Source of the DNA: a virus
IMG/VR virus record: IMGVR_UViG_3300035130_000336
Location: 1 to 64,000 of that record
Strand: one strand, 5' to 3'
Length of the DNA: 64,000 bases
Shown here piece by piece: positions 3,834 to 63,618 of the stretch (within the stretch, counting starts at the first letter, position 1; every line of letters starts with the position of its first letter). The notes beneath the pieces were generated by a model that made no database searches, was not told the origin of the DNA, and was given only the letters and a program-made list of their open reading frames with translations. A program made the translations under genes and the position numbers.

Positions 3834-3851
3834 CAAAAACCCTATACCCTA

Positions 3852-4062
3852 TTAAACGTTTAAATTATACACGTGTATAATTTAATATTTGTTAAATAGC
3901 GTTTTTAAGCAAATTTCGCCATTTAACACGTGTTAAATTATGCATGCTCATAATTTAACGTGTTAAATTATACACGTGTATAATTTAACTTTTAGTTAAT
4001 TATGGTCAAATTGATCAAATTTAGCCATTTAACGAGTTAAATTATGCATGCTCATAATTTAA
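3852..4062. repeat. Duplicated palindrome-rich control block upstream of terS
   Basis: Two copies of an about 100-bp block lie in tandem. A perfect 26-bp palindrome with arms TTAAATTATACAC stands at 3860-3885 and 3963-3988. A second 26-bp dyad with 10-bp arms TTAAATTATG/CATAATTTAA stands at 3933-3958 and 4037-4062. Between them both copies share a CAAATTT.GCCATTTAAC segment. Extra palindromes are TTAAACGTTTAA (3852-3863) and ATTTAACACGTGTTAAAT (3921-3938). All have related TTAAAT half-sites, which suggests binding sites for one dimeric regulator. The last dyad ends 29 bp before the terS start. An origin or partition site is the alternative. Confidence 0.8.
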
Positions 4063-4090
4063 TTTGTTAAATAGATAAAAAAGGAGCATC

Positions 4091-10297: not shown

Positions 10298-11238
10298 GTA
10301 GATTCTGTTTCTCATCCGTCTGCACGAACGATTCATATCAGTTCTTCATACCTTTATTCGTCTATACGACGAAGAAAGCGTATCCGGATGCCGGGGTTAA
10401 AGTGTTTGTTAAAGGAGAATTAAAGAATAATACCCGTGAAGCTTTGAAAATGATTCCGTATGATGGATGGGAAGTAAAGGAAAATTGTTTCAAATCATAC
10501 CCGAACAGGCCGTTTATAACGAATTGTCTGCGATTTCTTGTAAACGAAAAGGAATATAAAGGATATGACTATGTTTTTATAAAGGATATCGATTTTCTTA
10601 TATTCCCGCACAAGATTTCTCATTTGAAATTCTTTAAAGATGCCATGGGAGGACTGCCGTATTTCGGGGTGCGCGGTCCTTACCGGCATCCAAGGCGTTA
10701 CAATATAAATAGAATTGGATGGAAAGGTGATTTTACGAGAATCGCTGGCGGTTCTTTCGTTTTTAAAAACCCGGAATGGTTTGAAAAAACGCGGGAAATT
10801 CAGAAAAAGTATCGTTCTTTTATTAAACACAATCTTGCGGACGGTATCGACAGTCATATTCCCGCGTCGTACAGGGAATATGACGAAGTGATGCTTTATA
10901 GAATCGTTAAAAAGGCGGGATTGCCCGCTCCGACGAGAAAAAATAAAAATGTTTACAAAAAACATGCGCCAAAAATTTACAGGGATATACATCTGGGTGA
11001 TTTTATAAAGAGAAAACACGGCAAAAAAAGACTTGCCGGACGGGTAGCGGTTGAAAACCTGAAATTACTCGCCAAGCTTGAAAAAGATCCGTTATGGTTT
11101 CAAATACGGAAAAAAGTCGGTGAAAACGCCAAAATAAGAGAGATATTGAGACGCGTTCGAAAGTATACAAAATGGAAATTACATTTATCATCCTTATTAG
11201 AGGAAGAAACTGCGAAAAAACAGTTGAAAAATGCGTAA
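10294..11238 (+). CDS. Glycosyltransferase-like protein (314 aa), first gene of the sugar cassette
   Basis: The product starts at a GTG that overlaps the preceding stop (GTGA). Features fit a GT-A-type transferase: N-terminal VCTNDSYQFFIPLFVYTTKKAY, then a D-rich metal-binding-like motif YVFIKDIDFLIF around residues 92-104, then AGGSFVFKNPEWFEK, which resembles the acceptor-site region. The C-terminal 70 residues are very basic (KRKHGKKRLAGR). Donor and acceptor cannot be predicted. It is the first of the about 25-gene cassette that separates terL from portal. Its 3' end overlaps the next gene by 67 bp in another frame. Confidence 0.65.
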   Translation: MSRFCFSSVCTNDSYQFFIPLFVYTTKKAYPDAGVKVFVKGELKNNTREALKMIPYDGWEVKENCFKSYPNRPFITNCLRFLVNEKEYKGYDYVFIKDIDFLIFPHKISHLKFFKDAMGGLPYFGVRGPYRHPRRYNINRIGWKGDFTRIAGGSFVFKNPEWFEKTREIQKKYRSFIKHNLADGIDSHIPASYREYDEVMLYRIVKKAGLPAPTRKNKNVYKKHAPKIYRDIHLGDFIKRKHGKKRLAGRVAVENLKLLAKLEKDPLWFQIRKKVGENAKIREILRRVRKYTKWKLHLSSLLEEETAKKQLKNA

Positions 11239-55892: not shown

Positions 55893-56273
55893 ATGAAAAT
55901 TCGAAATCTTTCGGAATTGAATAAATATCCTATTCCGGAACATATAAAGCAACAGATCGTTGATGCATACCGAAAAAAAAAGAATGGAGATAATACTCCC
56001 CATTCCGTTACCGACATGGAACCGGCTTCTCGAAATGAATCCGTTTCAGCGTATTCGGGTGAGACATTTGATTCACCTGTTCATATCGATATTTATTCTA
56101 CCCGAAAGCAAAAGACCGACATTGATAACATATCGGGGAAAGCCGCAATCGACGGAATCGTTAATTGCGGAATACTTGAAACTGATTCGCCCGACCAAAT
56201 CGAAAGCTATCAGGTCCATAAGCCGGAAATATCGCCGGTAGAACAGACGGTGATAGTGATTGAGGAGGTATGA
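55893..56273 (+). CDS. RusA-like resolvase C-terminal half fused to an unrelated N-terminus (126 aa)
   Basis: Residues ~62-126 (SPVHIDIYSTRKQKTDIDNI, GKAAIDGIVNCGI, ETDSPDQIESYQV) are the C-terminal half of RusA-type Holliday-junction resolvases, whose catalytic acids include the D.DN and D.L/DD positions. Residues 1-30 (MKIRNLSELNKYPIPEHIKQ) look like the short N-terminal motif seen on other phage nucleases. Residues ~31-60 are low quality. The expected RusA N-terminal half is in the +1-offset frame at 55984. It is the last gene of the rightward block; array A begins directly after its stop. Confidence 0.65.
   Translation: MKIRNLSELNKYPIPEHIKQQIVDAYRKKKNGDNTPHSVTDMEPASRNESVSAYSGETFDSPVHIDIYSTRKQKTDIDNISGKAAIDGIVNCGILETDSPDQIESYQVHKPEISPVEQTVIVIEEV
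55984..56241 (+). CDS. RusA-like N-terminal half in an overlapping frame (85 aa)
   Basis: This frame starts MEIILPIPLPTWNRLLEMNP and continues FQRIRVRHLIHLF. The PIPLPTWNRLL..N..QR..VR.LIH pattern is the N-terminal part of short phage RusA-like proteins. After about residue 32 it continues ESLIAEYLKLIRPTKSKAIR, which is the out-of-frame reading of the RusA C-terminal half. The conserved N-terminal half ends at about 56076, just where the conserved C-terminal half begins in the other frame (56073). A -1 shift would join them. Confidence 0.5.
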   Translation: MEIILPIPLPTWNRLLEMNPFQRIRVRHLIHLFISIFILPESKRPTLITYRGKPQSTESLIAEYLKLIRPTKSKAIRSISRKYRR

Positions 56274-56274
56274 T

Positions 56275-57265
56275 GCGCCTTTGCTTCGCACGACCAAACG
56301 ATACTTAGCTTTGCTTTTGCTGGGCTAAACACAACAATGCCCCACATTGCCTTTGCAAAACAATGCATTGCATTACTTCACTTTGCCTTTGCAACACAAT
56401 ACGCAACACTACCATGCTCTGCCTATGCTCTACTTTACATAACATGACCGCACTTTGCCTTTGCATTACATTACATTACCACGCCTTTACATTACCATAC
56501 TCAACACCACCATGCTCCGCCTATGCTTCACACGCCGCTACTTCGCTTCGCTTTGCCTTTGCATTACTTCACTACACTATACGGTGCTTTTGCATTACTC
56601 CACTACACCTGACTCCGCATTGCCTTTGCAACACTATACATTGAATAGCCTTTCCAATGCATCGCAATACTTAACTATGCTGATCCTTTGCTAGCACAGC
56701 TTCACCATACACTACTTTTGCTTTGTCGTACTGAACGGAACTTTGCCCAACCATTGCAACACATGGCTATACTGCACAATACAATACCTTCGCATGGCGA
56801 TACGAAACAAGGCTTCACACTTCCTTTGCGTCGCTAAACCACGCAAAACTATGCCTTTGCCGTATTGAACGGAACTTCGCTTTGCCTTTGCGGCGTAAAA
56901 CTACGCTTCACTCAGCTTCTGCTTTACGCAACGAAACAGCACTATGCTTTACCTTTGCCATACAGCACATCACTTCGCTTTTGCTTGGCCACTCCTAACT
57001 ATTCTGTGCCTGTGCCACACGATACAACGCCTCGCCAAGCCTGTGCTTTGCTCCACCGTATCCGGCCCTGCTTTACCAAACCATTACAACACAGTGCAGT
57101 ACAAGGCTATGCCTGTGCTTAACTATACTAGACTTTGCCTGTGCCAAACATGACGAGACTTTGCCTGTGCTTAACTTTACTTTGCTTAACGGCACCATAC
57201 CACGCCTGTGCTCTACTAAACATCACTGTACTTTGCCTGTGCCATACACCACCCTGCAATACATG
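56275..57265 (-). repeat. Pentamer-phased array A (about 990 bp)
   Basis: On the + strand hexamers, mostly CTTTGC with CTATGC variants and CTGTGC near the right end, are each followed by a variable number of pentamers NNNRC. Example, 57178-57232: TTTAC TTTGC TTAAC GGCAC, later CTGTGC TCTAC TAAAC ATCAC. The array fills the convergent gap between the RusA-like stop (56273) and the stop of the leftward gene at 57316; the last 50 bp are degenerate. No gene is plausible in it. On the minus strand the grammar reads GCAAAG or GCACAG followed by GYNNN words. Confidence 0.9.
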
Positions 57266-57315: not shown

Positions 57316-57951
57316 TTAGCTTTTTAAATAATTGACGGTAAAGCGGCCTTTTCCACTGTTTCGCCACTGTCCGATGCCGCGCAATTGGCCATAATCAAGC
57401 CATTCGCGTACGAACTTTTCATGGCTGTCACTTAAACACTGAATTTCCAATTCGCAGGTGCTTCCTGCGGGGACGGTTTCACTGTTCGCCAAAGCAATTC
57501 TCTCGCCCTGTGCGGTATTTCCGCGAAGAGGACGTTGACAGTTTCCCATCTTGCCTTTTACTTTGATGGCAATCATTCTCGGGTGAACGAAAATACATCC
57601 ATCGATCACCTTTTTATACGCTCTTAATTCTCCCTTCTTTCCTTTACCCGATTCGGATTTTGACGCCTTATACGTTTCGAATCCCTCACAGCGCATGAGA
57701 GCGGCGCAGGTATCCTTGAAAAACCCCTTCCACTGGTAATCCCAAAAGATGGGATTACTATCCTTATCGCGTGGAAAAATAGTCATTGCTTTTTCAACAA
57801 CTTCTTCTATCCCGATCGCTTCCACTTCTTCTTCCCGCGACAGCTTATCGGGAGCCTTGCTTGCTATATACTCCGCATGGATTTCTTTTGACGGACTTGC
57901 TGTTCCCAACACTTCTTCTTGGAAAGTGATTTTTACTTTGAGCGTTTTCAT
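57316..57951 (-). CDS. Conserved phage protein with RAMP-like glycine loop (211 aa)
   Basis: The protein belongs to a phage family of unknown function that I recognise by KITFQEEVLGTASP, EIHAEYIASKAPD, MTIFPRDKDSNPIFWDYQWK, NCQRPLRGNTAQGERIALAN, and SETVPAGSTCELEI. Its last 20 residues contain GIGQWRNSGKGRF (192-204), which fits the G-h-G-x5-G-x-G loop of RAMP proteins (Cas5/6/7-like RNA binders). The loop match is by eye. AAAGG stands before the ATG. Array A lies behind the gene and array B in its leader, so it is enclosed by the unusual repeats. Confidence 0.75.
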   Translation of the reverse strand: MKTLKVKITFQEEVLGTASPSKEIHAEYIASKAPDKLSREEEVEAIGIEEVVEKAMTIFPRDKDSNPIFWDYQWKGFFKDTCAALMRCEGFETYKASKSESGKGKKGELRAYKKVIDGCIFVHPRMIAIKVKGKMGNCQRPLRGNTAQGERIALANSETVPAGSTCELEIQCLSDSHEKFVREWLDYGQLRGIGQWRNSGKGRFTVNYLKS

Positions 57952-57984: not shown

Positions 57985-58101
57985 TACCTTTGCATAACTT
58001 CACAACACATTGTTTTGCCTTTGCGTTGCCAAACTATTCCTTGCTCAACTCTGCCGTTGCAAAACACCACATTGCAATACAGCACTTTACAATTGCGATA
58101 C
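57985..58101 (-). repeat. Pentamer-phased array B (about 117 bp)
   Basis: Same grammar as arrays A, C and D, CTTTGC type: CTTTGC ATAAC TTCAC AACAC, then CTTTGC GTTGC CAAAC, then CGTTGC AAAAC ACCAC ATTGC AATAC. It fills the gap between the 49-aa gene (stop 58089-58087) and the leader of the 211-aa gene. The stop codon of the 49-aa gene lies inside the array phase. Confidence 0.85.
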
Positions 58102-58236
58102 ATCTCCTTTCTGTTTGAACCATTTGGTTTTTTCTTTATAATATTTTCTACTCTCCTCTCTTGTTTTATTTTTTGTTTCTCTATACATTTTGTCACGGGT
58201 TTTTCTTATGAATCTCATTACTTTGAAATTTTTCAT
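58087..58236 (-). CDS. Small basic helical protein (49 aa)
   Basis: A 49-codon frame not listed by long-ORF searches: MKNFKVMRFIRKTRDKMYRE, then TREESRKYYKEKTKWFKQKG. The pattern IR..RD.MY.ETK..T.EE...Y....  is that of a small helical protein common in phages and mobile elements, of unknown role. There is no clear ribosome binding site. Its end is directly joined to array B, and array C begins 34 bp upstream of its start. Confidence 0.55.
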   Translation of the reverse strand: MKNFKVMRFIRKTRDKMYRETKNKTREESRKYYKEKTKWFKQKGDVSQL

Positions 58237-58269
58237 AATTGATATTTTTTTTGAGATAATAAAAGAAAC

Positions 58270-59790
58270 CGTGCTGTTCCATACGATACGTTACATCGAC
58301 CTGCTTTTGCAACACTTAACTACGCAAATCCATACAAAGCTTTTGCGGGGCTAGACTAGACATCACAGTACCCCTGCCTCGCTGCGCGTTACATTACTAT
58401 GCATTACCCCTGCCCCGCTGCGCGTCACATTGCTATGCTTTACCTTTGTTTTGCTGGGCAATACGTTACCGTGCGTTGCCATGCCTGTACGGAACTTTAC
58501 TTAACTCTACTTAGCCTTTGCTCCACAAAACATAACTTCACTTTGCCATTCCTGTGCTACACAAGACACAACCTTACTCTACCATGCCTTTCCTTTGCTT
58601 GGTTATACTGTACCATGCCATACCTGCGCAATACCCCACAATACCGAACTGTACAATGCTACGCCTTAACAATGCCAAACAGCGCTTTGGCATGCATTGC
58701 CGGTGCTGTGCCAAACTACTCAACGCTTTACCATCGCCATGCCAAGCTTTGCCGTTCCTTTGCCGCACTAAACGCCGCGATACCATGCCTGTGCATAACC
58801 ATGCATAACTGTGCTCTGCCTGTGCATTACTGAACAACATACCGCTTTGCCTTACCTTTGCAGAACAATGCTTCGCTATGTATTGCCTGTGCTCCACAAT
58901 GCATCACAATACTTCACATTGCTTCGCCTTTGCCATACAGCGACATGCGATACTCCGCCTTTCCTTTGCAAAACACAGCGTCACAACGCATAGCCTATGC
59001 TTCACGAAACAGCACGTCACAAAACTATGCCTTTGCGTCACTAAACTACACAGTGCCTGTGCTTTACTAAACATCACTTTGCTTTTGCATAACAGCACAT
59101 CACTACGCCTGTGCTTCACCTTACTTCACTCTACATTGCCTGTGCCGCGCAATACATAGCGAAACCAGACCATGCCTGTGCATAACGTTACCAAACTCTG
59201 CTGTGCCTGTGCATTACCTTACCTCACTTCGCTTTACCATGCCAGCGCACCACGGTACAGCACTATGCCTGTGCATCACGCTACCAAACAATACATTGTC
59301 ATGCATGTGCATCACATTACTTCACTTCCCACCGCCTGTGCCTTACTAAACTCCACTCTACAGTGCCTGTGCATCACTTGACTTCGCTCTACCTCGCTTT
59401 GCCTGTGCATTACATCACCACACAGTGCTTTGCCGGTGCTTCACGTTACAACACTATACACTACATATCCTAACCATTTCTTTGCCAAACAGTGCATCAC
59501 CATACAATGCCGGTGCCATACATTGCTATACCATGCATCGCCTGTGCTTTGCTTCACTCCACCTCGCTTTGCCTGTGCTTGGCTTAACCACGCTCTGTCT
59601 GTGCATTGCATCACGGCACACAACGGGACAGCACTACGCCTGTGCATCACTAAACTATACTGTGCCTGTGCTTGGCTTAACTAATCTGTGCCTGTGCATC
59701 ACTTCGCCGCACATAGTTCTGCTGGTGCTTTGTATTACTATACTATGCATCGCCTGTGCATGACAGTACATCACATTGCTTTGCCTCTGT
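58270..59790 (-). repeat. Pentamer-phased array C (about 1.5 kb)
   Basis: The longest array. The left third has mixed hexamers (CTTTGC, CCCTGC, CTGTGC), the rest nearly all CTGTGC. Units such as CTGTGC TTTAC TAAAC ATCAC TTTGC and CTGTGC TTCAC CTTAC TTCAC TCTAC ATTGC show the rule: words ending in AC, with the last word before the next hexamer usually ending in GC. Occasional one-base slips or substitutions occur and the phase then resumes. It lies between the 49-aa gene and attP. Open frames up to 144 codons run through it on both strands but are by-products of the composition. Confidence 0.9.
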
Positions 59791-59949: not shown

Positions 59950-60010
59950 GGAGGGGAGAGGATTTGAACCTCCGGTAGAGTTGCCCCTACGCAGGTTTAG
60001 CAACTCTACG
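59950..60010 (-). other. attP: attP core: 3' half of tRNA-Ser(GCU)
   Basis: On the minus strand the segment from the anticodon loop (TTGCTAA, 60004-59998) to the discriminator base (59950) matches the 3' half of a serine tRNA. It has anticodon-stem strand ACCTG, a long variable arm GTAGGG-GCAA-CTCTAC, a T-arm with TTCAAAT loop, and the acceptor strand CCCCTCCG. The 5' half is missing. A phage attP normally carries this so that integration rebuilds the host tRNA. GTAGAGTTGC and GCAACTCTAC form a 10-bp inverted repeat, 15 bp apart, across the core. The integrase gene starts 35 bp away. Confidence 0.85.
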
Positions 60011-60044
60011 GCGGAGTAGGTTTCACCCAATAAAACCAATGGTT

Positions 60045-61097
60045 CTATGCCGTCTTTCGCAGCGAAAAGGCTACCTGAGGGCTACATAATACGTCATTTA
60101 TGATATCAATCTGACGCCGGTTGTCGTAAACATGCTGCGTTTTCGGACTCGTTTGAATGCCCATTTTCTTTAACATCTCATAGGTGAATCCCTGCCGCAA
60201 CAGATACGTCTCCGCGCAATGCTTTAAATCGTGCCAGTTGAAATCATAAATCCCCACCTGTTTTAAAACTGTATCGAAATGCCATCGGGGATCGCTGATT
60301 TTTTTCCAGACGACCTTTCCGTTTTTCCGTTCCAACATGGGAAAGAGCCACGGACAATCCTTCGGCAACGAATGGGCGTACCGGACAAAATCCATGTCGA
60401 TATTCGGCAGGATCGTTACCCGGATTTTATCTTTCGTTTTCTTCGCCTGAAAACGAACGACCCATCGTGATACTTCCATCTGAAGATTTTTTCGCTGTAA
60501 ATTGAAAAGATCCCCCTTGCGGATGGGATTAATAAGGGAGAATTTTACCGCTTCGAGAATGTGGGATTTATGTAAGGTCAAATAATTGATCAGGGCGTTT
60601 TTTTCGCCGTCGGAGAGAATCCGATTGCGCTCGTTGCCTTTCCTGATCCTCCATTTTCTGACCGTGGTTCGACCGCACCGCCCGGTTTCATAAGCGAAAT
60701 TGCAGATTGACCGGACGACGATTTTATAATTATTGACGGTATTGACCGCAAGGCCGCTCCCTTCGAGATTTCCGACATACCGGCTGTAACCGGCGGCGAA
60801 AATCTGCTTGTCGGGAAACAGACGACCCAATTCCTTAATCGATCGGTCGTAACACGCCTGATTAAATCCCCCGCGTCCGCGCTCGTTCAAATAAAGTTCC
60901 GCGCATTTGGAAAATCGTAACGATGTCAAAGAACAATCTCCCGTCAATGAACGGGCTTCGATCTGATTTTTTAAATGCTGATCGAAATTATCCGTCTTGC
61001 GGCGGAAGTGACGCGCCTTTCCCGCGCCGTTTCGGTATGCCCGGTCAACGTAATACCACCGAACCCCATTTGCATCATTCTTATACCAGACTCGCAT
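60045..61097 (-). CDS. int: Tyrosine recombinase (integrase), 350 aa
   Basis: Catalyses site-specific integration at the neighbouring attP. The start is ATG 61097, set by GGGAGGAG seven bases upstream; the frame remains open to 61184. The N-terminal part (MRVWYKNDANGVRWYYVDRA) is an arm-binding-like domain. The catalytic domain has Arg in NPIRKGDLFNL, Lys in FQAKKTKDKI, and Tyr324 in TQHVYDN. The second catalytic Arg of the HxxR box is replaced by Lys (HDLKH, His289/Lys292), and the usual GH before the Tyr is missing (KMGIQTSPKTQ). It may still act, as it looks otherwise intact. Confidence 0.88.
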   Translation of the reverse strand: MRVWYKNDANGVRWYYVDRAYRNGAGKARHFRRKTDNFDQHLKNQIEARSLTGDCSLTSLRFSKCAELYLNERGRGGFNQACYDRSIKELGRLFPDKQIFAAGYSRYVGNLEGSGLAVNTVNNYKIVVRSICNFAYETGRCGRTTVRKWRIRKGNERNRILSDGEKNALINYLTLHKSHILEAVKFSLINPIRKGDLFNLQRKNLQMEVSRWVVRFQAKKTKDKIRVTILPNIDMDFVRYAHSLPKDCPWLFPMLERKNGKVVWKKISDPRWHFDTVLKQVGIYDFNWHDLKHCAETYLLRQGFTYEMLKKMGIQTSPKTQHVYDNRRQIDIINDVLCSPQVAFSLRKTA

Positions 61098-61168
61098 ATC
61101 TCCTCCCTTTTCAGGGAGGGTATCTGAGTATAATATAGTATCAGGTAGGGGAAAAGAGGGTATATTTT

Positions 61169-61441
61169 CTACGCTTTTACGCATACCGCATTATAGATGA
61201 TTTTATTGGCGTATTCCGGACAGAATTCAGGCGTTTTCGACATATCGTATCGATTGCCCTGTTCGTATTTCACGCAAGTGTTTTTGAGGGGACACTCTTC
61301 ACAGGTCGGAATATCTTTTTTCCACCGGTCGGCGTATTCCCGGCAGCCGCCGAGCATACATCGCGGACTCCACTTATGCGGGACGGCGGAGGGACACCCT
61401 TCACACTCTTTTACGGCTTTGCCGCAAATATAGAGGCTCAT
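61169..61441 (-). CDS. Cys-rich hypothetical protein (90 aa)
   Basis: About twelve cysteines in a 90-aa protein: CGKAVKECEGCPS, CMLGGCREYAD, CEECPLKNTCVKYEQ and FCPEY. They could bind two or more zinc ions or an iron-sulfur cluster. It sits between the excisionase-like gene (4-bp overlap) and integrase, so it may belong to the lysogeny module. Family unknown to me. Confidence 0.65.
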   Translation of the reverse strand: MSLYICGKAVKECEGCPSAVPHKWSPRCMLGGCREYADRWKKDIPTCEECPLKNTCVKYEQGNRYDMSKTPEFCPEYANKIIYNAVCVKA

Positions 61442-61641
61442 TTTTTTCTTCCTCTCTCCGGCAATAAAAACTCTCCGCCGGTCAGTCGTTTTTCAATATC
61501 GGCACGCCTGAACCGATAAATTCCCCCGATTTTTACCATACCGGGCAGACGTCGTAACGCCATGTATTTTTCGATGAACTTTTTACTGACGTTCAACCTC
61601 TCGCTCAGCTCGTCGGGAGTCATCAGCGAATCTTTCGTCAT
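61438..61641 (-). CDS. Excisionase-like helix-turn-helix protein (67 aa)
   Basis: From ATG 61641, with AAGGAG six bases upstream, the product MTKDSLMTPDELSERLNVSK, then GMVKIGGIYRFRRADIEKRL is a MerR/excisionase-type winged helix (DNA-binding domain, excisionase family). It likely binds attP and steers integrase toward excision, or acts as a small regulator. It is co-translated with the Cys-rich gene. Array D begins in its leader and touches the ribosome binding site. Confidence 0.8.
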   Translation of the reverse strand: MTKDSLMTPDELSERLNVSKKFIEKYMALRRLPGMVKIGGIYRFRRADIEKRLTGGEFLLPERGRKK

Positions 61642-61650
61642 ACGCGCTCC

Positions 61651-62150
61651 TTGCCTTTGCATCACTGAACATTACTTTGCATTGCCATGCCTGTGCTTGA
61701 CTACGCCTTACTTCGCCTGTGCTATACTAAACTTCACATCGCATCGCCTGTGCTACACCAAACAACACTGCGCACTGCCTGTGCCTAACTCAACAATGCC
61801 AAACCGTGCCTGTGCTTAACAAAACAACACCATGCTAATCCTGTGCTTCACATAACTGAACAGCACTATGCATTGCCTGTGCCGCGCAATACACCACCTC
61901 GCTTTGCCTGTGCTGGGCCAAACATTACCCTGCCTTGCCTGTGCATAACGAAACTCCACCGCGCATTACCTGTGCATTACCTTACCAAACCTTACATCAC
62001 CATGCCTGTGCAAAACTTGACATTGCTTCACGATGCCTGTGCTTAACAAAACATGTCATAACAATGCATTGCCTATGCTTAACCAAACCGTGCTGTACCT
62101 GTGCTTGACAATACATCACCCCACGGTGCCTATGCATTACCTTACCAAAC
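61651..62150 (-). repeat. Pentamer-phased array D (500 bp)
   Basis: The cleanest array. I parsed it by hand into 16 hexamer-led units: one CTTTGC, two CTATGC, the rest CTGTGC, each followed by 4, 5 or 6 pentamers. Unit lengths are therefore 26, 31 or 36 bp. Of about 80 pentamers all but two (TAATC, ATGTC) end in AC or GC. The words are varied: TTGAC, TACGC, CTTAC, TTCGC and so on. The array exactly fills the gap between the SSB-like stop (62155) and the leader of the excisionase-like gene. Confidence 0.95.
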
Positions 62151-62154
62151 ACCG

Positions 62155-62583
62155 TTAAAACGGCAGATCGGAATCCGCTGGGGGAGCGTTGTTCTGGTCC
62201 GCCAGATGTTTCGCTTCACGGCACACGTAATCATCGATTTTGTTCTTGTCGGGATAGATGCCGTTTTTATCCACTTCGATACCGATTTTTGCTTTACCGA
62301 CACGACCTTCGAAATCGAAGGCTCTGAGGCTTCCCGTTTCGTATTTCGCCAGCAGCCCGAAAGCATCGCATGCATGGCGGAGTTTCGCGGGCATCTCATC
62401 AAGCAGATAGTCATAGATTCTGTTGACGACGCGATCCCCCAACCAGACGGCAATAGTAAGCCGGATCATCTCCTTGTCGTTTTTACTTACCTGATCGATC
62501 GCTTCGATCACTTCGACGTCGTAAACGCCTTTATCGATGATTTTTCTCGGTAGATCTTTTTCCGAATAGGTTTTGAACCTCAT
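62155..62583 (-). CDS. SSB-like protein, DUF669-type (142 aa)
   Basis: From ATG 62583, coupled to the ATPase by an ATGA overlap. GVYDVEVIEAIDQVSKNDKE, NRIYDYLLDEMPAKLRHACD, and KAKIGIEVDKNGIYPDKNKI follow the plan of the phage DUF669-like family, thought to bind single-stranded DNA. The last residues, ADSDLPF, resemble the acidic tip of SSB proteins (D..PF) that recruits other repair factors. Together with the Sak4-like ATPase this makes a recombination pair. Confidence 0.75.
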   Translation of the reverse strand: MRFKTYSEKDLPRKIIDKGVYDVEVIEAIDQVSKNDKEMIRLTIAVWLGDRVVNRIYDYLLDEMPAKLRHACDAFGLLAKYETGSLRAFDFEGRVGKAKIGIEVDKNGIYPDKNKIDDYVCREAKHLADQNNAPPADSDLPF

Positions 62584-63479
62584 TTCTTTTTTCCGCCTTT
62601 CAATTTGCCGTTTAACCATTCTATTGTTTTCGCCGCCTGATCGGCGGTAAGTTCGTTCCAGTTGTCCGCTCCCGCCTTGGTCAATACTTTCGTCGTTTCC
62701 TCAGGGGTGATTTTAAGGAGCGCCACCATCCGTTCGATTTCCTCGACATCTTCATCCGACGCGATCGTGATAGGGTTTACATTCGATTCAATATTCTCCC
62801 TGCCGTACCGTTTCGAAAACTCCTCGTAATCGAGGGAAAAGGTTTCCTGATCGGGAAAACCCGCGAGGCGCGTTTTATAAACGATCGCCGTCGGCGGATA
62901 GACGGTGCCGCGTTTGATCACCCGCAATCCCAGATCAAGCTCGTAAACGAGTTTGTCCCATACGTCGGGACACTTTCCTGTCTCTTCCCGCTGCCCGGTT
63001 CGGGGATTGGTACCCCATTCCGACGTCTCATGCGCGATGAACCAGATGTTCATATCAAGTTTCATACACCAATTGACAAGTCGGCGCATTTGCGCGATCG
63101 CCGGTTTTTTCGACGCGCCAAAGACATCACGTTCGGCGAGACGCTCCGCCTCGTTGGCGATGCATGTCTGGTAGACTTTCGTGATTGAATCGATCACCAG
63201 CGTACCGTAATTATGTTTTTCGGTGGCAAGCGACTGCATCTCGGTAACGATCGCCGAAAGGTCAAGCGCCCCTTCTTCCGGTCCCATGTACGCGCCTCCC
63301 GCCGCTTTGAGGCGTTTCTGGTATTCCACTCCATCCGCTCCCCCTTCGGTATCGATATAATACGGCCTTGGGAACGTGAGAGAAAACCATGTTTTTCCCA
63401 CTCCACTCGCTCCGAAAAGAAGCCCTTTCGCCTTACCCTGTTTTACTTCTTCAGGATCTTTCGCTTTCAATTTGCTCAT
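62580..63479 (-). CDS. Sak4-like RecA-fold ATPase (299 aa)
   Basis: From ATG 63479 with GGAGG eight bases upstream. Walker A GASGVGKT at 23-30, PYYIDTEGGADG (residues 39-50), and Walker B YGTLVIDSITK at 91-101, followed by MNIWFIAHETSEW, characterise phage Sak4/AAA_24-type single-domain RecA-like ATPases, which anneal or pair single strands during replication-recombination. The C-terminal ~50 residues (LKITPEETTKVLTKAGADNW) form a helical domain. Its partner SSB-like gene follows directly. Confidence 0.85.
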   Translation of the reverse strand: MSKLKAKDPEEVKQGKAKGLLFGASGVGKTWFSLTFPRPYYIDTEGGADGVEYQKRLKAAGGAYMGPEEGALDLSAIVTEMQSLATEKHNYGTLVIDSITKVYQTCIANEAERLAERDVFGASKKPAIAQMRRLVNWCMKLDMNIWFIAHETSEWGTNPRTGQREETGKCPDVWDKLVYELDLGLRVIKRGTVYPPTAIVYKTRLAGFPDQETFSLDYEEFSKRYGRENIESNVNPITIASDEDVEEIERMVALLKITPEETTKVLTKAGADNWNELTADQAAKTIEWLNGKLKGGKKK

Positions 63480-63618
63480 CAAAAACCTCCATTGATTGAC
63501 AATTAGCGGTGCAGCGGTTATGTTCCCGGTCCCACGGCGCACCGCATTCGGGACATGTTTCTTTCACGATGTCATTGCCGTTGCGTCGACGGCGGTCGCG
63601 CGACGGAACGGGCGTCAT
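63451..63618 (-). CDS. Small zinc-ribbon protein (55 aa)
   Basis: ATG 63618 overlaps the previous gene's stop (ATGA) and has AGCAGGA upstream. The product has an Arg-rich start and CPECGAPWDREHNRCTANC, a C..C...C...C zinc-binding cluster. It ends 29 bp inside the ATPase gene. Function unknown. Confidence 0.6.
   Translation of the reverse strand: MTPVPSRDRRRRNGNDIVKETCPECGAPWDREHNRCTANCQSMEVFDEQIESERS

What the first reader, a model, noticed from the sequence alone, without database searches (positions are those of the whole stretch)
57985..59790. Arrays occupy nearly every gap of the leftward block and stop at gene borders; hexamer type shifts along the genome
Array A fills the convergent gap before 57316, B the gap between 57951 and 58087, C the gap between the 49-aa gene and attP, and D the gap before the excisionase-like gene. 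None interrupts a gene, and none occurs in the rightward block. The hexamer is CTTTGC in A and B, mixed in the left part of C, and CTGTGC in most of C and in D. This gradient suggests the arrays grow and drift locally by expansion rather than being inserted as finished units.
Basis: partly seen in the sequence, partly recalled or inferred. Interest (0 to 1): 0.7.

Follow-up and report, generated by a model that had tools for sequence, protein, structure and literature searches.

The report
Phage guide-RNA arrays (VIPR system)
The odd repeats between this virus's genes are almost certainly arrays of small guide RNAs for a CRISPR-like protein (Vipr) encoded right beside them, part of a recently described system that phages use to silence rival phages; this phage carries dozens of such guides, written with a slightly different spelling from the one published.

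Summary
Arrays A-D, plus a fifth array E in the rest of the contig, share one strand and one grammar. Read leftward it is (GYNNN)4-7 punctuated by a phase-shifting hexamer, GCAAAG or GCACAG. Chance does not produce this: 49 matches against 0 in shuffles.

A blind DNA-pattern scan of IMG/VR recovered 47 stretches; 41 of them encode a homologue of the window's 211-aa gene (57316-57951, minus). In the reverse test, 112 non-redundant loci recruited by that protein held 249 strict modules within 2.5 kb of the gene. All 249 were on its coding strand, and none lay beyond 4 kb.

The protein has no Pfam, PHROG or NCBIfam match, but its model is a Cas7/Csm3 RAMP fold. Its profile aligns full length with the SUSP1 Vipr family (E 9.5e-9). 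This is therefore a VIPR system (PMC13142463): the arrays are vrRNA guide arrays, not passively expanding satellites.

Between two close relatives the G changes at 1-5%, Y at 16% and the three Ns at 23-31% each, and indels are often whole modules. The published code is GGY/NN with a one-base skip. Here all three Ns vary and weak evidence hints at contiguous triplet reading. No natural target was found.

The parts
57316..57951 (-). vipr: 211-aa RAMP (Cas7/Csm3-like) guide-RNA-binding protein with C-terminal glycine-rich loop GIGQWRNSGKGRF
   Evidence: AlphaFold model pLDDT 84, pTM 0.80; Foldseek: the 50 best PDB hits listed are all class 1 CRISPR RAMP-complex structures (Csm, type VII Cas7, one Cmr, Cas7-11), best E 3e-7; profile vs SUSP1 Vipr family hhalign prob 95.7, E 9.5e-9; no Pfam, PHROG or NCBIfam family
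56280..57262 (-). array A: vrRNA array directly 3' of vipr (GYNNN units; hexamers GCAAAG on the left, GCACAG on the right)
57985..58090 (-). array B: short vrRNA array directly 5' of vipr
58306..59784 (-). array C: longest vrRNA array, about 30 hexamers recognised
61655..62150 (-). array D: vrRNA array between the excisionase-like gene and the 154-aa gene, 16 hexamers
55981..56006 (-). terminator-like stem-loop with U-tract, about 270 bases past array A, possible end of the leftward transcript (inferred; terminator-like sites in this region are no more frequent than in shuffles)
   Evidence: 10 pairs, loop 6, T-run
60045..61184 (-). tyrosine integrase of the same leftward block (context, not part of the guide system)
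   Evidence: PF00589 E 4.9e-5 below gathering score; phrog_1 integrase E 8e-27
61438..61665 (-). HTH_17 excisionase-like protein (context)
58087..58236 (-). 49-aa ORF between B and C; absent from the close relative L049, so doubtful as an accessory (vap) gene
   Evidence: most of it is deleted in L049

Best explanation
The arrays are vrRNA guide arrays of a VIPR (Viral Interference Programmable Repeat) system whose RAMP protein is the 211-aa gene 57316-57951. SHOWN HERE: the pentanucleotide grammar, strand lock, tight linkage to a Vipr-family RAMP gene across more than 100 phages, hypervariable NNN within near-invariant G, and whole-module gain or loss between relatives. INFERRED from the published SUSP1/P. 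fulva systems: the arrays are transcribed leftward with or near vipr; Vipr protomers coat the RNA, one per 5-nt unit, holding the GY and presenting the Ns; the complex binds matching double-stranded DNA of competing phages, prophages or satellites and represses transcription, giving this temperate phage a bank of dozens of programmable repressors. INFERRED, weaker: each hexamer-bounded module (26-36 nt and longer, 4-7 units) is one guide or the start of one, with the extra base of the hexamer acting as punctuation.
For: DNA-only scan: 41 of 47 viral stretches with the two-hexamer pattern encode the 211-aa homologue. Protein-only scan: 112 non-redundant loci, 249 strict modules within 2.5 kb of vipr, 249/249 on its coding strand, 0 in 444 kb beyond 4 kb, 3 in reversed-sequence controls. 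RAMP fold; PDB profile hits to type VII Cas7 (E 4e-4), Csm4 (0.018) and SUSP1 Vipr 36pp (weak, 0.83). Vipr homology: hhalign E 9.5e-9 against a SUSP1-family profile that itself hits 36pp at 7e-75. SUSP1's own flanks show YNNGG repeats on the vipr strand, as the paper describes. Array evolution.
Against: No RNA data for this phage. No natural target was identified: contiguous-triplet decodes of 274 modules found 0 exact or near matches in 1.9 Mb of related loci, and five decoded guides searched in IMG/VR gave only chance-like hits. No conserved accessory (vap) gene was found beside vipr in this group. The constant motif is GY rather than GGY, and no structured 3' tail like SUSP1's was recognised. 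Type assignment was not possible because the paper's supplement is not readable here.
Confidence: 0.93

Rival explanations
1. Locally expanding and drifting intergenic satellite repeats with no guide function.
For: Whole-module indels between relatives and blocks of one hexamer type.
Against: Strand lock, exclusive linkage to vipr in 112 phages, near-invariant G against hypervariable N, and non-identical neighbouring units (so not simple tandem duplication).
Confidence: 0.03
2. DNA-level binding sites (centromere, packaging or nucleoid-type iterons) for the RAMP-like protein or another protein; the 5-bp period is half a helical turn.
For: A 5-bp period with a fixed dinucleotide could phase DNA contacts; a Sak4-like protein sits nearby.
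Against: RAMP folds bind RNA; all arrays are strand-locked to vipr; the hexamer shifts helical phase by one base every module; hypervariable Ns are not expected of iterons.
Confidence: 0.02
3. A VIPR array, but with guides spanning several hexamer-bounded modules (staggered, overlapping vrRNAs as the paper mentions) rather than one guide per module.
For: SUSP1 vrRNAs have 9-16 units, whereas modules here have 4-7; the paper reports staggered arrays in some types.
Against: Single modules are gained and lost independently between close relatives.
Confidence: 0.4

Closest known systems
VIPR systems, type II (Escherichia phage SUSP1, Pseudomonas fulva prophage); PMC13142463
   Same: Phage-encoded minimal RAMP (about 20-23 kDa) with glycine-rich loop; flanking same-strand arrays of pentanucleotides with constant and hypervariable letters; no cas genes beside it.
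   Different: Constant GY with three variable Ns instead of GGY with two; one-base-longer hexamer GCAAAG/GCACAG every 4-7 units instead of 9-16 units plus a structured tail; far more guide modules (48 strict, about 80 hexamers) spread over five gaps; no recognised vap gene.
Class 1 CRISPR-Cas backbone proteins (Cas7/Csm3, type VII Cas7, Csm4)
   Same: RAMP/RRM fold and C-terminal G-rich loop; protomers expected to repeat along guide RNA.
   Different: No CRISPR repeats or spacers, no Cas1/Cas2, Cas6 or large subunit near the gene; guide and constant letters alternate every 5 nt.
TIGR-Tas (tandem interspaced guide RNA) systems (from memory, not tested)
   Same: Phage-linked tandem guide arrays with very short variable segments.
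   Different: Tas proteins are Nop-domain (box C/D snoRNP-like), not RAMP; repeats carry box C/D-type motifs rather than a 5-nt GY grid.

Membership tests
VIPR system | Vipr protein: minimal RAMP homologous to known Vipr | tested here: met
   Foldseek RAMP hits; hhalign to SUSP1 Vipr family prob 95.7, E 9.5e-9, aligned over the full length
VIPR system | Flanking non-coding arrays of pentanucleotide repeats with constant and hypervariable positions on the vipr strand | tested here: met
   (249/249 modules on the vipr strand)
VIPR system | Constant motif GGY with variable NN, or a related consensus | tested here: inconclusive
   Constant motif is GY; the base before G is A/T/G/C 0.39/0.33/0.20/0.09. 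It fits 'related consensus' only; fig. S17 could not be read
VIPR system | vrRNAs expressed and bound by Vipr | not testable with these tools
   needs RNA sequencing or pull-down
VIPR system | Targets in competing mobile elements under the 1-nt skip rule | tested here: inconclusive
   No targets found for decoded guides in related loci or IMG/VR; the 1-nt-skip pattern itself was searched for two guides only
VIPR system | Adjacent accessory gene (vap) | tested here: inconclusive
   No gene other than vipr is shared by more than a quarter of 112 loci within 4.5 kb; the 49-aa ORF is absent in the close relative
VIPR type II (SUSP1 type) | YNNGG repeats and a structured 3' tail | tested here: not met
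   Repeat is GYNNN and no tail was seen; not filed as type II
CRISPR-Cas (class 1) | CRISPR array plus cas genes | tested here: not met
   No repeat-spacer array in the window repeats scan; the neighbouring proteins scanned are not Cas families

The most novel reading that the evidence does not exclude
This VIPR group uses a different code from the published one: each 5-nt unit presents three pairing bases (GY-NNN), so the target is read as contiguous triplets without a skipped base, and the hexamer marks guide boundaries. The best signal is that the last N of a unit and the first N of the next, separated in the array by the constant GY, are statistically dependent (conditional on locus and Y, p about 0.001; best of nine position pairs), and the dependence resembles ordinary adjacent-base bias of phage genomes.
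Probability: 0.35. Interest if true: 0.8.

Novelty: new member of a known kind. Interest (0 to 1): 0.62.

Why it matters
VIPR is proposed to be the phage-borne ancestor of CRISPR RAMP effectors, and so far a pairing code has been shown only for type II. This group (438 IMG/VR stretches with a relative) offers dense arrays with a different constant motif, all three remaining bases variable, and a built-in hexamer punctuation mark. That makes it a direct test of whether the noncontiguous code is universal, and of how guides are gained and lost. It also shows that long intergenic pentanucleotide arrays, easily dismissed as satellites or misread as genes, can be located in raw sequence by grammar alone.

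Tried and rejected
(1) Codon-register reading: triplets look like codons and in-register stops are depleted (z -3.3 sense), but TA dinucleotides are depleted generally and TGA is not. N5 does not behave as a wobble position across genomes, and changes between orthologous modules are not enriched for synonymous ones (6 observed, 6.0 expected). Rejected as unproven. (2) Contiguous-triplet code: pair dependence N5 to next N3 survives conditioning (p 0.001), but two other pairs reach p 0.005-0.008 and G000 with L049 alone is weak (z 1.4), so it is kept only as the novel case. (3) Direct target search failed: local loci, IMG/VR patterns for five guides, phage blastn. (4) Host identification: the contig is an unassigned IMG/VR record; vipr relatives occur in only 2 of 397 genomes of the family of L070's host. 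(5) Rfam: no family near its threshold, no hammerhead in the arrays. (6) Promoter and terminator scans: no excess over shuffles.

Full report
OBSERVATION. On the + strand the four gaps read CTKTGC followed by 4-7 pentanucleotides NNNRC. On the minus strand, the coding strand of the leftward block, this is (GYNNN)n punctuated by GCAAAG or GCACAG. Runs of this grammar occur in A 56280-57262, B about 57985-58090, C 58306-59784 and D 61655-62150, nowhere else in the window, and never on the other strand. A 26-nt form has 49 matches against none in 100 shuffles. The contig is a 73,074-bp IMG/VR record, and a fifth array E lies at 71285-72440 on the same strand. Periods are 26, 31 and 36 (5n+1), because the hexamer adds one base to the 5-nt grid. 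The hexamer types form blocks (A left GCAAAG, A right GCACAG; C mixed then GCACAG; D GCACAG; E mixed), not one gradient.

WHAT IT IS. Scanning IMG/VR for two hexamers spaced by five NNNRC units, with no protein information, returned 47 stretches. Of these, 41 encode a homologue of the window's 211-aa ORF 57316-57951, usually with the array abutting its 3' end, in contigs from about 37 to 66% GC. Two of 15 bacterial-genome stretches, L070 (Clostridia-type MAG) and L083 (Sedimentisphaerales MAG), also hold it. In reverse, protein-recruited loci reduced to 112 non-redundant vipr genes contain 249 strict modules within 2.5 kb. All are on the vipr coding strand, there are none in 444 kb beyond 4 kb, and three in reversed-sequence controls; 75 of 112 loci have at least one strict module. 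Several of the loci that failed a first, stricter scan show looser GNNNN arrays with GCAAAG by eye. In 100 of 112 loci one cluster of similar antisense ORFs rich in ALLCLC-like peptide was found, which I read as translation through the arrays.

THE PROTEIN. No Pfam, PHROG or NCBIfam family is reached. A 32-member alignment gives an AlphaFold model with pLDDT 84 and pTM 0.80. The 50 best PDB matches listed are all from class 1 CRISPR RAMP complexes (mostly Csm and type VII Cas7), best E 3e-7. The sequence profile weakly hits type VII Cas7, Csm4 and PDB 36pp 'SUSP1 Vipr protein'. A profile of SUSP1 Vipr relatives, which itself hits 36pp at 7e-75, aligns with ours over the full length at E 9.5e-9, probability 95.7. 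SUSP1 itself carries YNNGG arrays on the vipr strand beside its gene. The literature names this VIPR: phage-encoded RAMP plus vrRNAs of alternating GGY/NN that bind double-stranded DNA under a one-base-skip rule and repress competing phages (PMC13142463).

HOW IT EVOLVES. Against a close relative (L049/L084; vipr protein 99.5% identical), array lengths differ (A 1044 vs 1084; B+C 1919 vs 1659; D 511 vs 461). Many indels are of 26, 31 or 36 bp or 5-10 bp. Aligned cells differ at G 1-5%, Y about 16%, and N3/N4/N5 23-31% each. Some of the mismatch comes from pairing non-orthologous modules. In 30 confident module pairs the three N positions also change about equally (15, 13, 11) and synonymous change is not enriched. 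So guide content turns over quickly while the constant letters are kept.

MECHANISM. Most likely, leftward transcription through D-C-B-vipr-A makes vrRNAs; Vipr binds one protomer per GYNNN unit; the Ns pair with DNA of a competing element and the complex blocks transcription. The array anatomy, linkage and fold are shown here. Transcription, RNA binding and repression are inferred from SUSP1. A terminator-like hairpin lies at 55981-56006 (minus) past array A, but such sites are not in excess over shuffles.

THE CODE. In type II the fifth base is a constant G opposite the skipped target base. Here it varies as much as the other two. If it pairs, the target would be contiguous triplets. In 3,082 unit pairs from 88 loci, dependence between N5 and the next N3 is the strongest of nine pairs (p 0.001 conditional on locus and Y; Bonferroni about 0.009) and resembles genomic adjacent-base bias. 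But two other pairs are also significant, G000 with L049 alone is weak, and no natural target was found. I report this as a possibility, not a finding.

STATUS. A member of the VIPR kind; not type II; type otherwise unassigned because the paper's supplement could not be read.

Noticed in passing
contig G000 71285-72440 (L068 15286-16440), outside the window: A fifth array of the same grammar on the same strand, about 14 kb from vipr; its hexamers run GCACAG, GCATAG, GCAAAG from left to right, opposite to array A.
   Followed up: partly
antisense of arrays A-D and of arrays in 100 of 112 related loci: The 5-nt grid gives long spurious antisense ORFs (ALLCLC-like peptides) that resemble each other between phages and would be mistaken for a conserved gene family.
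   Followed up: partly
L109 9250-9500 versus 10574-10900: One locus seems to carry two grammars: GGYNN-like arrays (as in SUSP1) upstream of vipr and looser GNNNN arrays with GCAAGG-type breaks downstream.
   Followed up: no
L105, L126, L088, L090 flanks of vipr: In other relatives the second base of the unit is often A (GANNN), so the constant part may be only G in some clades.
   Followed up: partly
window 62155-63542 (-): A Sak4-like ssDNA annealing protein (phrog_124) lies next to a 154-aa protein without a family in the same leftward block.
   Followed up: no
window 3851-4072: Imperfect 104-bp tandem repeat built of ACACGTGT / TTAAATTA palindromic motifs, unrelated to the arrays.
   Followed up: no
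Pseudomonas phage LESphi2 (L279 601-1185): The 'hypothetical protein' P21_9 of this P. aeruginosa LESB58 prophage is a Vipr homologue (38% to SUSP1 Vipr).
   Followed up: no
window 59950-60045: A tRNA-3'-end-like stretch beside the integrase (probable attP), not called as a tRNA by ARAGORN.
   Followed up: no
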